Shown one piece after another: positions 2,921 to 26,470 of a DNA stretch of 26,470 bases. A program made the translations under genes and the position numbers. The stretch comes from Lachnospiraceae bacterium (GTDB lineage: Bacteria > Bacillota_A > Clostridia > Lachnospirales > Lachnospiraceae): NCBI GenBank assembly GCA_028694115.1, contig JAQUUB010000056.1, forward strand, positions 1-26,470, in the 5' to 3' direction. Below the pieces are notes generated by a model. That model was not told the DNA's origin. It did not search any database and saw only the letters and a program-made list of their open reading frames with translations. The stretch's first letter is position 1. Each line of letters opens with the position of its first letter.

Positions 2921-3790
2921 CTCGTTCTCTAAAGATAATTTTATTTCCAGCCCCTTTTCTGTAGCAGCCAAACCGCCTGTTCCAGTTTCTTTTAAGGAAG
3001 GATGCATTTTATCTCCGATATCCTTCATCGCATCAATAATCTGATCAATTGGAATTGCAGTTTCCATTCCTGCTAAAGCCATATCTGCACAGAGATATGC
3101 ATTTGCAGCTCCTAGTGCATTTCGATTGATGCAAGGAATTTCAACAAGTCCTGCTACGGGATCACAGGCAAGCCCTAGTAAATTCTGCAATGCAATTCCA
3201 GCAGCATGTAATACCATCTCTTTGCTGCCTCCTTTGATAAATACTAATGCACCAGCGGCCATTGAACTCGCAGTTCCTATTTCTGCCTGACATCCCCCCT
3301 GAGCTCCGGAGATACTTGCTCTTGAGGCAATCACCTGACCAATTCCAGAGGCAACATAGAGAGCATCTATAATTTGTTCCTGTGTTGCTTTTTTCTCCTG
3401 AAACATTGGAATTAAGACCGCAGGTAACACACCACAGGAGCCACCTGTAGGAGCTGCAACAATTCTTTGCATACACGCATTGGATTCACCCATCTGAGTG
3501 GCTACTTTCATTACCTTCCCTAAAAATTCACCACTTAATGGAGTACCCTCCTTCATGTAATTTTCTAATTTTTGTCCGTCGCCGCCTGCCAGTCCACTCG
3601 TCGACCGTAGTTTTCCATTATAGGTAGCATGAGCAAACAGCATCGCATCAAAAAGAGCGGTCATTTGTTTGATAGAATCTTCTCTTGTCATACCTGTTTC
3701 TTTACAATCATTTTCTAATACAACCGTCTTAAAATCCTGGTTTTTCTGATTACAGACTTCTAATAGATCTGCTAACGATTTAAATGCCAT
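2918..3790 (-). CDS. sdaAA: L-serine ammonia-lyase, iron-sulfur-dependent, alpha subunit
   Basis: Catalytic subunit of the two-subunit, oxygen-sensitive [4Fe-4S] L-serine dehydratase, converting L-serine to pyruvate and ammonia. Seen: the family motif APTGGSCGVLPAVL with a cluster-type cysteine, ASISGAQGGCQAEIG, CDPVAGLVEIPC with further cysteines, and the C-terminal GTGGLAATEKG. The likely start is ATG 3790 (MAFKSLADLLEVC), which gives about 290 aa. Upstream in-frame starts at 3802 and 3838 fall inside a hairpin repeat, so their codons are probably not protein-coding. The reading frame follows sdaAB, 200 bp upstream, in the usual Clostridia order; the intervening DNA is the structured repeat described separately. 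Well assigned; only the start is uncertain. Confidence 0.92.
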   Translation of the reverse strand: MAFKSLADLLEVCNQKNQDFKTVVLENDCKETGMTREDSIKQMTALFDAMLFAHATYNGKLRSTSGLAGGDGQKLENYMKEGTPLSGEFLGKVMKVATQMGESNACMQRIVAAPTGGSCGVLPAVLIPMFQEKKATQEQIIDALYVASGIGQVIASRASISGAQGGCQAEIGTASSMAAGALVFIKGGSKEMVLHAAGIALQNLLGLACDPVAGLVEIPCINRNALGAANAYLCADMALAGMETAIPIDQIIDAMKDIGDKMHPSLKETGTGGLAATEKGLEIKLSLENE

Positions 3791-3804
3791 TTTTATACCC
3801 ATCT

Positions 3805-4003
3805 GCATGCTTCGAGCATGCAAAATTATGCTTCGCATAATTATTAATCAATAGTTGAACACGTATTTTATTCAACCTTCCAGACGTGCCGCTATAAGCG
3901 GCACAAATAATCAGTGAGAAGAAGGCGCTTGCGGCTTCTTCCTGTGTGAGATTTAGTGATTCTTAGGAGCAGTATTTTCGTGACTTAGAATCACTTCTCA
4001 CAC
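3805..4003 (-). repeat. Modular multi-hairpin repeat, copy A (between sdaAB and sdaAA)
   Basis: A chain of six hairpins: (1) 3944-4003, outer arms GTGTGAGA/TCTCACAC and inner arms GTGATTCT/AGAATCAC; (2) 3918-3941, 10-bp arms with one mismatch and a 4-base loop; (3) 3886-3904, GTGCCGCT/AGCGGCAC; (4) 3854-3876, GTTGAA/TTCAAC; (5) 3825-3841, ATTATGC/GCATAAT; (6) 3805-3821, GCATGC/GCATGC. The box ACAAATAATYARTGA sits between hairpins 2 and 3. Hairpins 1, 2, 3 and 6 and the box match copy B near the right edge in the same order and orientation, but several stem sequences differ in a base-pair-preserving way. Hairpin 1 overlaps the last codons and stop of sdaAB. There is no run of T after any stem, so it does not look like a simple terminator. 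Confidence 0.75.
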
Positions 4004-25258: not shown

Positions 25259-26202
25259 TCTATTATCTCTTTCCTTTTTAGTTTTTCTATCATAAACTGT
25301 AGTATTTGCTCCGTGTTATAAGAGAAGTCTGCCTTATTTACAAAAGTTACTGTCTTTTCTCTTCGAAACCAGGTCAACTGTCTTTTAACAAAGTGTCTTG
25401 TGTCTCGTTTTAATCGATAAACAGCTTCTTCTAAAGTTGTTTGACCATCTAAGTAATCAAGAATTTCTTTATAACCTAAGCCCTGCATTGCAACACTTGC
25501 GGTATCGTATCCCATCTTTTTCAAGTTTTGAACTTCCTCTAACAATCCATTTTCAAGCATTTGATCAATTCTTAAATCGGTTCTTTGATATAGGCGCTCT
25601 CGTTCATCATTCAATACAAAATATTCAAAATTATATGGTGATGGTCTCTCTCTTTCTGCTTCATTATGCTCAGAGATTTTCTTCCCCGTTTCATGATAAA
25701 ATTCAATTGCACGAATCACTCTTTTTATATTATTTTCATGAATGTTTTTTGCAGAAACAGGATCGATTTCTTCAAGTTTTTGGTGCAGAGCAGAAATTCC
25801 TTCTTTTCTTGCTAATTCCTCTAATTGCTGTCTATAACCATCCCGGTTACTCTCCTCTGCAAAATCAATGTCATAAAGAACTGCCTGTATATAAAATCCA
25901 GTACCACCAACTATAATCGGAATTTTACCTTTTTGATAGATTTCCTCTATCGCTTCTTTTGCCATTTTTTGAAATTTCGCAACATGAAACTCTTCATTCG
26001 GTAATAATTCATCAACAAGATAGTGTTTAACCCCTTGCATTTCTTCCTTGGTGATTTTTGCTGTTCCAATGTCCATAAATTGATAGATCTGCATGGAATC
26101 CGCTGAAATTATTTCTCCGTTGATAGACTTCGCTAAAAGAATCGATAATTCTGTTTTACCAACACCCGTTGGCCCCGTTAAAACAACTAAAGGCTTTTTC
26201 AT
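25255..26202 (-). CDS. miaA: tRNA dimethylallyltransferase
   Basis: Transfers a dimethylallyl group to N6 of A37 in tRNAs that read UNN codons. Seen: P-loop GPTGVGKTE (10-18 from the chosen start), the catalytic aspartate region SADSMQIY, IVGGTGFYIQAVLY, and C-terminal TRHFVKRQLTWFRRE. About 315 aa, normal. The start is ATG 26202 (MKKPLVVL) with GGGAG six bases upstream; an in-frame ATG at 26232 lies inside the repeat hairpin and would code from repeat sequence. The ribosome site itself (AAATGGGAG) merges with the end of the repeat. Confidence 0.95.
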   Translation of the reverse strand: MKKPLVVLTGPTGVGKTELSILLAKSINGEIISADSMQIYQFMDIGTAKITKEEMQGVKHYLVDELLPNEEFHVAKFQKMAKEAIEEIYQKGKIPIIVGGTGFYIQAVLYDIDFAEESNRDGYRQQLEELARKEGISALHQKLEEIDPVSAKNIHENNIKRVIRAIEFYHETGKKISEHNEAERERPSPYNFEYFVLNDERERLYQRTDLRIDQMLENGLLEEVQNLKKMGYDTASVAMQGLGYKEILDYLDGQTTLEEAVYRLKRDTRHFVKRQLTWFRREKTVTFVNKADFSYNTEQILQFMIEKLKRKEIIE

Positions 26203-26211
26203 ACTATACTC

Positions 26212-26470
26212 CCATTTGCATACTTTGAGCATGCTAATTCATTTAAAGAGAAGAATCCGCTCTAGCGGAACAAATAATTAATGAGAAGAATCCGCTTGCG
26301 GATTCTTCCTGTGTGAAACTTAGATATACTTAGCATGGTTCTCTCATGCGTTAGTATATCTTTTCACACTTTCAAACATGCCGATGCGGCATGCTCTCCT
26401 TCGTCGTGCCTTTCGGCACAAATAATTAATGAAATCAAGTAAAAAATCTTGATTTTTTATTTCCATTTGC
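26212..26470 (-). repeat. Modular multi-hairpin repeat, copy B (upstream of miaA, reaching the window edge)
   Basis: Chain of hairpins filling the space before miaA: 26432-26455 (AAATCAAG/CTTGATTT), 26406-26419 (GTGCC/GGCAC), 26377-26393 (CATGCCG/CGGCATG), 26311-26369 (outer GTGTGAAA/TTTCACAC, inner GATATACT/AGTATATC, tip GCATG/CATGC), 26285-26308 (10-bp perfect stem, 4-base loop), 26256-26269 (TCCGC/GCGGA) and 26218-26234 (GCATAC/GCATGC), then CCCATTTGC next to the miaA ribosome site. The ACAAATAATTAATGA box occurs twice (about 26270 and 26418). At the edge the CCATTTGC box reappears, so another module may continue outside. A 40-codon frame (26466-26344, minus) runs through it but is probably not a gene. 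Confidence 0.75.

What the first reader, a model, noticed from the sequence alone, without database searches (positions are those of the whole stretch)
3805..4003. Modular structured repeat family with compensatory stem changes (copies at 3805-4003 and 26212-26470)
Both copies share the same order on the minus strand: a two-part long hairpin, a 10-bp hairpin, the box ACAAATAATYARTGA, a C/G-rich hairpin, then a GCATGC hairpin ending before a start codon. Stem sequences differ but pairing is kept. The outer stem is GTGTGAGA/TCTCACAC versus GTGTGAAA/TTTCACAC; the inner stem is GTGATTCT/AGAATCAC versus GATATACT/AGTATATC. The mismatch after the inner 8 bp and the 1-versus-4-base internal loop are also kept in both. 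That pattern means structure is selected, as RNA or as single-stranded DNA (MITE/REP-like). I do not recognise it as a described family. With only two long copies, convergent hairpin turnover is possible.
Basis: seen in the sequence. Interest (0 to 1): 0.78.

Follow-up and report, generated by a model that had tools for sequence, protein, structure and literature searches.

The report
Mobile hairpin element between operon genes
A family of small, strongly folding DNA repeats, present in up to dozens of copies per genome in some Lachnospiraceae-type gut bacteria, sits right between neighbouring genes, in its complete form carries its own ribosome-binding site, and shows signs of having moved recently.

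Summary
A covariance model of the two window copies matches 19 of 299 genomes of the family of bacterium C-53. A model of the long hairpin counts up to 73 copies per genome and matches 37 of 38 genomes of one genus, but 2 of 398 phylum-wide. Of 24 stem pairs, 22 show double compensatory changes, while bulge, A·A mismatch and AAANNAC loop persist. No Rfam family matches. Copies lie between co-directional genes in sense orientation (101 sense, 4 antisense), often starting at the upstream stop codon. Complete copies (hairpins 1-2, ATTTG box, hairpin 3, Shine-Dalgarno) tend to sit between a Shine-Dalgarno and a start codon and rebuild the Shine-Dalgarno. Six copies in one genome have identical hairpins 1, and a sister genome has the site of a near-identical copy empty, without a gap. 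G·T pairs are no commoner than A·C (73 vs 86 cells), which points to DNA-level pairing rather than RNA selection alone. Neither Y1/RAYT transposase nor reverse transcriptase goes with it consistently. Copying step and function are inferred.

The parts
3944..4003 (-). Copy A, hairpin 1 (module 1): outer 8-bp stem, 3-nt bulge, 9-bp inner stem, A·A mismatch, loop AAAATAC (the apical five pairs are not formed in this copy)
   Evidence: R2 match 71.1 bits, E 1.2e-12 (this sequence is one of the 29 the model was built from); fold
3991..3993 (-). Stop codon of sdaAB lying inside hairpin 1 (the element supplies the end ...KCEK*)
   Evidence: ORF list and sequence; the 97% identical homologue P0001 ends ...KCEN
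3917..3942 (-). Copy A, hairpin 2 (GGAAGAAG...CTTCTTCT)
   Evidence: Fold; a hairpin directly follows hairpin 1 in 126 of 162 copies against 9 of 162 shuffled controls
3903..3917 (-). Copy A, box TCACTGATTATTTGT
   Evidence: Exact match; ATTTG-type box before hairpin 3 in other genomes
3886..3904 (-). Copy A, hairpin 3 (GTGCCGCT TAT AGCGGCAC)
   Evidence: Fold
3804..3877 (-). Copy A, three further hairpins, about 3853-3877, 3824-3842 and 3804-3822 (GCATGC)
   Evidence: Fold; limits read from the sequence
3788..3803 (-). Copy A, 3' end: GATGGGTATAAAA then the likely sdaAA start codon ATG (3790-3788)
   Evidence: Sequence; compare the ATGGRGGATTA-ATG ends of complete copies
26311..26369 (-). Copy B, hairpin 1
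   Evidence: R2 match 64.9 bits, E 2.9e-11; fold
26284..26309 (-). Copy B, hairpin 2 (GGAAGAATCCGC AAG...)
   Evidence: Inverted repeat I24
26270..26284 (-). Copy B, box TCATTAATTATTTGT
   Evidence: Exact match
26256..26269 (-). Copy B, hairpin 3 (TCCGCT AG AGCGGA); its right arm can also pair with the left arm of hairpin 2, and does so in the lowest-energy fold
   Evidence: (I23)
26218..26234 (-). Copy B, last hairpin (GCATGC...GTATGC)
   Evidence: Fold
26200..26217 (-). Copy B, 3' end: AAATGGGAGTATAGT (Shine-Dalgarno GGGAG) then the likely miaA start codon ATG (26202-26200)
   Evidence: Sequence
26376..26470 (-). Partial third copy cut by the window end: hairpin AATCAAG/CTTGATT, box 26418-26432, hairpin GTGCCG/GGCAC 26406-26419, GCATGC hairpin 26376-26394
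   Evidence: Box exact; weak R1 match 26412-26470, 15.8 bits, E 0.028; fold

Best explanation
It is a small (about 90-220 nt), modular, non-autonomous mobile DNA element of Lachnospiraceae-type bacteria. SHOWN: a 60-nt hairpin (8-bp outer stem of free sequence, bulge of usually 3 nt, 9-bp stem, A·A mismatch inside CTAAG/CTAAG, about 5 more pairs, loop AAANNAC), usually followed by a second hairpin and, in complete copies, by an ATTTG(T/A)G box, a GC-rich hairpin and a Shine-Dalgarno ending in TA. Copies are dispersed, in part recently, and lie in sense orientation at gene junctions: often starting at the stop codon of the upstream gene or, for most complete copies, between a Shine-Dalgarno-like stretch and a start codon. 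INFERRED: the complete element spreads without a transposase of its own, by recombination or polymerase template switching between the Shine-Dalgarno-like repeats (GGAGGNTTA type) found before it and at its own end. This would explain sense orientation, site choice, tandem arrays and the lack of a target duplication beyond the shared TA. The stems stay paired because pairing acts on DNA (a single-stranded DNA hairpin, and/or arm-templated correction). In the mRNA the hairpins then separate two cistrons and the element's own Shine-Dalgarno restarts translation, so insertion is nearly harmless.
For: Copies: 19 of 299 family genomes; copy numbers up to 73, and 0 in 11 other family genomes; 37 of 38 genomes of one genus, 1-75 copies each. 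Covariation: 93.5% of 696 cells paired, 22 of 24 pairs with double changes, 169 doubly changed cells against 8 changed on one side. Mobility: six G1032 copies at unrelated sites have the same 60-nt hairpin 1; at five measured sites (four of these six and L374, one base different) the element is 125-126 nt. Without the element, the L374 site aligns with no gap to sister genome G1050 across the junction (GGCAGATA|ATATG against GGCAGACA|ATATG). Site, by my own ORF calls: of 127 copies with both neighbours of at least 90 aa, sense/sense 101, divergent 14, convergent 8, antisense/antisense 4; 40 of 224 same-strand gene pairs sampled in G133 lie on the lagging strand, so 4 of 105 is fewer than replication strand alone would give (p = 3e-5). 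Where the upstream gene is in sense (122 copies), its stop codon ends within -2 to +3 nt of the element in 52 and within -35 to +5 in 83. Complete copies found by pattern: 30 of 218; TA before the element in 26 of 30 (66 of 188 in the rest); Shine-Dalgarno-like stretch before it, by a permissive pattern, in 20 of 30 (40 of 188); ORF of at least 40 codons starting within 14 nt after the element's own Shine-Dalgarno in 20 of 30, another element in tandem in 4, neither in 6. DNA-level pairing: 73 G·T and 86 A·C cells in 205 distinct hairpins; in the 161 with at most two non-Watson-Crick pairs 18 and 49; in hairpin 2, 13 and 21.
Against: No enzyme or intermediate was found. The sequence shared between flank and element end is short (2-9 nt). 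Most copies (188 of 218) were not recognised as complete, and Shine-Dalgarno exchange does not explain why shortened copies sit at stop codons. The same junction is occupied in several genomes with different stems (rpsK-rpsD, rpsH-rplF and metallo-hydrolase-thyA, three genomes each), which could mean local function. G·T and A·C are cells, not independent events, and differ by region: outer stem 34 against 12, middle 14 against 18, apical 17 against 41. The controls for this test are weak: terminator-like hairpins 13 against 7, 13 tRNAs 18 against 3. The exact empty site rests on one pair of genomes about 80% identical there; at the second site compared, five sister genomes lack the element but differ by small indels near the Shine-Dalgarno, and at the first site G1055 has no clear gene start.
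Confidence: 0.52

Rival explanations
1. A conventional cis-acting RNA family: the hairpins act in mRNA (for example as RNase III-type processing sites, mRNA stabilisers or cistron insulators), are selected at each site, and spread is incidental.
For: Strong sense orientation at gene junctions, position at the stop codon, occupancy of the same ribosomal-protein junctions in several genomes, and few copies between convergent genes (8 of 127; against the G133 layout p = 0.02), unlike BOX/RUP/SPRITE, which PMC3049150 (section 6 read) finds enriched there.
Against: G·T pairs are not commoner than A·C pairs, whereas a small tRNA control gave 18 against 3; neighbouring genes look functionally unrelated to my eye; some copies are recently mobile.
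Confidence: 0.25
2. A MITE or REP moved in trans by a transposase: either a Y1/RAYT-type enzyme acting on single-stranded hairpins or a TA-targeting (Tc1/mariner/IS630-like) enzyme.
For: Hairpin shape; TA before 26 of 30 complete copies, whose own ends also tend to be TA; A at -1 in 94% of 162 copies; recent identical hairpins.
Against: PF01797 was not found in 12 of the 19 carriers, among them those with 73, 28 and 22 copies, and was found in 5 of 11 non-carriers; reverse transcriptase was not found in 6 of 12 carriers tested (1 of 8 non-carriers); I saw no mobiliser gene recurring among the ORFs near copies; complete copies show no terminal inverted repeat by eye. Other transposase families were not searched, and assemblies may be incomplete.
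Confidence: 0.25
3. No family: unrelated hairpins kept palindromic by replication template switching, so that the two window copies resemble each other by chance or convergence.
For: Template switching can create and fix paired stems (PMC8794818, abstract and outline seen), and the near-equality of G·T and A·C fits arm-templated correction.
Against: Bulge, A·A mismatch, AAANNAC loop and module order recur across genomes and would be erased by correction alone; dispersed copies with identical hairpins exist.
Confidence: 0.05

Closest known systems
REP / BIME / REPIN with RAYT transposases
   Same: Short intergenic palindromes, many copies, tandem arrays, DNA hairpins with mismatches or bulges
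   Different: 60-nt hairpin with a free outer-stem sequence; no GTAG tag rule; no Y1 gene found in 12 of 19 carriers; tied to stop codons and Shine-Dalgarno sites
BOX, RUP and SPRITE repeats of Streptococcus pneumoniae
   Same: Structured small interspersed repeats near genes, BOX being modular
   Different: BOX/RUP/SPRITE are 61-63% leading-strand and enriched between convergent genes (PMC3049150 section 6); this family is sense-oriented between co-directional genes and its complete form ends in a Shine-Dalgarno. I ran no sequence comparison
MITEs in general
   Same: Small non-autonomous elements with hairpin potential, dispersed, in part recently
   Different: No terminal inverted repeat seen in the complete form; target duplication at most the ambiguous TA or a few bases
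ERIC and Correia (CE) elements (as described in PMC3049150 passages)
   Same: Structured repeats that, when inserted in operons, may mark transcripts for RNase E or RNase III cleavage
   Different: Other clades; cleavage and sequence likeness not tested here

Membership tests
REP/REPIN (RAYT-associated) | GTAG tetranucleotide next to the hairpin | tested here: not met
   The three bases before the hairpin read GTA in 11 of 162 copies, so GTAG can occur in at most 11
REP/REPIN (RAYT-associated) | Y1 (RAYT) transposase in the genome | tested here: not met
   PF01797 not found in 12 of 19 carriers; present in 5 of 11 non-carriers; the search rang in 5 of 14 named control genomes. Assemblies may be incomplete
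REP/REPIN (RAYT-associated) | Abundant, extragenic palindromes that fold as hairpins | tested here: met
   Up to 73 copies per genome, intergenic or overlapping gene ends, hairpins
MITE | Terminal inverted repeats matching a transposon | tested here: inconclusive
   Hairpin 1 is an inverted repeat, but the ends of the complete 125-126-nt element (GTGTGAAAA... and ...ATGGAGGATA) are not inverted copies by eye; no transposon ends were compared
MITE | Target-site duplication | tested here: inconclusive
   Left flank and element end share at least TA at each of five G1032 sites; at the one exact empty site no further duplication is needed
BOX (pneumococcus) | boxA-boxB(n)-boxC sequence modules | not tested
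   No sequence comparison with BOX was made; only genomic distribution was compared with PMC3049150
Any Rfam family | Match at the family's gathering score | tested here: not met
   Window: 0 matches; 20 loci, 19 of them with elements: only TwoAYGGAY, T-box, 6S and tRNA matches, none overlapping an element; best sub-threshold match to copy A is Cyano-1, 20.3 bits against a cut-off of 41
Integron attC-like sites | Structure-recognised single-stranded hairpin with conserved R boxes | not tested
   Considered from recall only

The most novel reading that the evidence does not exclude
A ribosome-binding-site-homing element: a transposase-free repeat that copies itself into the spacer between the Shine-Dalgarno and start codon of new genes by exchange at the Shine-Dalgarno sequence itself, brings a replacement Shine-Dalgarno so that the gene stays on, and keeps its stems paired by DNA-level arm copying rather than by RNA selection.
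Probability: 0.25. Interest if true: 0.88.

Novelty: new variant of a known kind. Interest (0 to 1): 0.68.

Why it matters
Small repeats are usually thought to survive where they do least harm, such as between convergent genes. This family does the opposite: it sits between genes of working operons, ribosomal-protein operons among them, almost always reading with the genes, and in its complete form it replaces the very signal that starts translation. Its stems are a case in which paired substitutions abound but G·U-type pairs are no commoner than A·C, so covariation, normally read as proof of RNA function, may here report DNA-level pairing. That makes two questions testable: whether a mobile element can home to ribosome-binding sites, and how far covariation tests mistake DNA palindromes for structured RNA.

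Tried and rejected
Box-only search: exact 19-base matches in 34 genome and 3 viral stretches showed no element on reading; rejected as chance. A looser viral pattern gave 11 stretches without a model match at E 1 or better, and a 3'-half pattern none. BLAST against phages (copy A, a complete G1032 copy) and plasmids (copy B, the same G1032 copy) gave no convincing match. Y1/RAYT rejected as a general mobiliser. Reverse transcriptase not found in 6 of 12 carriers tested. A shared mobiliser gene near copies: not seen; the recurring ORF groups are, to my eye, ABC-transporter-like ORFs and orthologous housekeeping neighbours. Terminator-like hairpins as control for G·T against A·C were few and mixed (13 against 7); the tRNA control is small (13 tRNAs, 18 against 3, with 25 other mismatched cells that suggest some misregister). 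Replication strand as sole cause of orientation: rejected at p = 3e-5, using the gene layout of one contig of one genome (G133) for all. My first regular expression for complete copies missed true ones (15 found); the corrected one found 30, of which L335 looks doubtful, and it still misses L369 and L370, which lack hairpin 2. The one match in G257 (L097) looks like a false positive (R2 E 0.002) and was left out of counts from then on, so the 19 carriers may be 18. One of the two phylum-draw carriers, G213, has only the second element class described under Noticed in passing.

Literature: (search listings) showed no paper describing this family; the MITE review PMC10969869 holds none of the six terms I looked for, and PMC3733652 none of Clostridi-, Firmicutes or Lachnospir-. 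PMC8040213 (passages seen) reports 3,161 candidate RNAs, 250 of them palindromic; its tables could not be opened (no supplement look-ups), so part of this family may be listed there.

Selections to tell: alignment A7 uses 29 of the 82 distinct hairpins (62 were aligned), chosen for being 60 nt and gap-free, which favours sequences that fit. Counts over all copies are; there, matches overlapping a better one (mostly the opposite strand) and identical sequences were dropped (193 matches, 166 copies, 161 distinct). Match listings were cut by the tool and I fetched part of what they list, so the copies examined are a sample leaning to high scores. Gene neighbours are from my own ORF script, not from annotation.

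Full report
What is in the window. The window looks like a stretch of a Lachnospiraceae-type bacterium; its own genome is not held. Its SdaAB has one homologue cluster at 97% identity, and the next are at 71-74% or less. Its MiaA is at best 66% identical in the listed matches of 291 of 299 sampled family genomes. Copy A lies between sdaAB and sdaAA, copy B upstream of miaA, both in the reading direction of the genes (gene names are mine). Each is a chain of hairpins with folding z-scores of -6.56 and -8.45. Copy A begins inside the sdaAB frame and supplies its last codons and stop; the 97% homologue ends ...KCEN instead of ...KCEK, as expected if a slightly different copy sits at the same place in a relative.

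It is a family. A covariance model from the two copies (R1) gave nine matches at E 0.1 or better in bacterium C-53, the best at 4e-8, and matches in 19 of 299 genomes of that family at E 0.001 or better (18 if the doubtful G257 is dropped). From 29 gap-free hairpins I built a model of hairpin 1 alone (R2). With R2 the copy numbers at E 0.01 or better are, for example, 73, 43, 28, 22 and 17 in G093, G270, G048, G202 and G133, and none in 11 other genomes of the family. In wider draws at E 1e-4 or better: 18 of 392 genomes of the order (eight of these were also in the family draw), 2 of 398 of the phylum (C-53 itself and G213, the latter with a variant class), 37 of 38 of the genus of G202. Five further named genomes (Anaerocolumna AGMB13025, Butyrivibrio YAB3001, an uncultured Roseburia, a Defluviitaleaceae and a Sedimentibacter) had none. 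NCBI taxonomy lists C-53 only as an unclassified bacterium; that it belongs to Lachnospiraceae is my reading. 'Family', 'order' and 'genus' are the search tool's groups, and whether all order-level carriers are in the same family is not told.

Anatomy. Hairpin 1 is about 60 nt: an 8-bp outer stem whose sequence is free (GTGTGAAA, AGAGATGA, GCCTAAAA, GGACGAAA and others, each with its complement), a bulge of usually 3 nt (2-4) on the 3' side, a 9-bp stem, an A·A mismatch inside CTAAG/CTAAG, about five more pairs and the loop AAANNAC. On the 29 selected sequences 93.5% of 696 cells pair (shuffles 69.7%), 22 of 24 pairs show changes on both sides, and 169 cells are doubly changed against 8 changed on one side. 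A second hairpin follows directly in 126 of 162 copies (9 of 162 in shuffled controls). Some genomes use another hairpin 2 (G133, G018). Complete copies then carry an ATTTG(T/A)G box, a GC-rich hairpin and a Shine-Dalgarno followed by TA.

Where it sits. Of 162 copies analysed with my own ORF script, 127 have both neighbouring ORFs of at least 90 aa: sense/sense 101, divergent 14, convergent 8, antisense/antisense 4. In a 400-kb sample of one G133 contig 40 of 224 same-strand gene pairs (18%) lie on the lagging strand; 4 of 105 is significantly fewer, so orientation follows transcription rather than replication alone (p = 3e-5, G133 as proxy for all). Where the upstream gene is in sense and at least 90 aa (122 copies), its stop codon lies within -35 to +5 nt of the element in 83 and within -2 to +3 nt in 52. 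The base before the element is A in 94% of 162. Neighbours are ordinary, often essential genes: rpsK-rpsD, rpsH-rplF, rpsE-rpmD, dnaK, tpiA, and a tRNA-Asn/tRNA-Glu cluster (protein names by my reading of translated ends). Reciprocal filled and empty junctions between genomes place the insert between stop codon and Shine-Dalgarno (rpsE-rpmD filled in G066 and empty in G037; rpsH-rplF the reverse).

It moves. In G1032 six copies have an identical 60-nt hairpin 1 at different places. I read 14 of the 25 G1032 copies; ten keep the 3' half (two of them, L369 and L370, without hairpin 2). All ten have a purine-rich, Shine-Dalgarno-like flank ending in TA before them and, a few bases after their own Shine-Dalgarno, an ATG; after L367 the frame is only five codons long, so no gene is evident there. 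The other four (L371-L373, L375) lie elsewhere. For five sites I joined the flanks without the element and searched the genus. At one (L374, whose hairpin differs by one base from the six) the joined sequence aligns without a gap to sister genome G1050 across the junction. At a second (L365) five sister genomes lack the element but differ by small indels around the Shine-Dalgarno. Tandem copies joined through the same Shine-Dalgarno end occur (L116, L118), and so does a four-unit array in L148.

DNA or RNA. If the stems were kept by selection on RNA alone, G·U should be tolerated more than A·C. In 205 distinct hairpins there are 73 G·T and 86 A·C cells (and 173 other mismatches); among the 161 best-preserved ones 18 and 49. 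These are cells, not independent events, and the outer stem taken alone goes the other way (34 G·T, 12 A·C), mainly in degenerate copies. The excess of A·C in good copies, if real, would mean G·T on the complementary strand, that is, the non-coding strand would be the one that folds; I treat this only as a hint. Template switching during replication can create and repair hairpin stems (PMC8794818, abstract and outline). It would make paired changes in one step, but would not by itself keep the bulge and the A·A mismatch; so a constraint on shape remains.

What moves it. The obvious candidate, a Y1/RAYT transposase, was not found in 12 of 19 carriers, including those with 73, 28 and 22 copies. 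Reverse transcriptase was not found in 6 of 12 carriers tested. No mobiliser gene recurs beside copies as far as I could see. At the five measured sites element end and left flank share a Shine-Dalgarno-like stretch ending in TA, identical over 2-9 nt. I therefore favour spread by exchange between Shine-Dalgarno repeats, but this is inference, and other transposase families were not searched.

Known relatives. Rfam has no match. The nearest kinds are REP/REPIN, MITEs and the pneumococcal BOX/RUP/SPRITE repeats; the last are reported as 61-63% leading strand and enriched between convergent genes (PMC3049150, section 6), unlike this family. No paper listed in my searches describes it (searches named in Tried and rejected). 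I file it as a new variant of a known kind: structured small mobile repeats, distinguished by placement at Shine-Dalgarno and gene junctions and by stems that look paired at DNA level.

Noticed in passing
L295, L296, L297, L299, L305, L306 (G362, G576, G213, G502) around 1501-1555: The same core (CTAAG-N5-AAANNAC-N5-CTAAG) sits inside a differently built palindrome (outer arms such as TTTATGG/CCATAAA, then GAAAACGT/ACGTTTTC): a second element class sharing the core hairpin.
   Followed up: partly
L293 at 1501-1555 and L303 at 807-861 (G471): A third setting of the core, inside a larger inverted repeat GGTGACGCGCC...GGCGGTCACC.
   Followed up: no
L091 and L277 (G241), about 142-203: The element lies a few bases after the 3' end of a tRNA-Asn gene and before tRNA-Glu, so a stop codon is not needed for placement.
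   Followed up: no
L154 (IMGVR_UViG_2861627031_000002) 2439-2498; L152 4750-4795: A match to the hairpin in each of two viral contigs; the one in L154 is followed by further hairpin-like stretches and an ATG.
   Followed up: no
L148 (G018) 1559-1950: Head-to-tail array of about 90-nt units of hairpin 1 plus hairpin 2, with what look like internally deleted partial units.
   Followed up: no
L086, L108, L180 (metallo-hydrolase - thyA); L084, L246, L264 (rpsK-rpsD); L125, L290, L292 (rpsH-rplF): The same gene junction carries an element in three genomes each, with quite different stem sequences: ancient insertions with stem turnover, repeated insertion, or local function.
   Followed up: partly
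L116 / L161 (G048), beside the tandem pair at 1590-1824 of L116: An ORF that reads to me like a tyrosine recombinase lies next to this tandem pair; seen near one locus only, not tested as a mobiliser.
   Followed up: no
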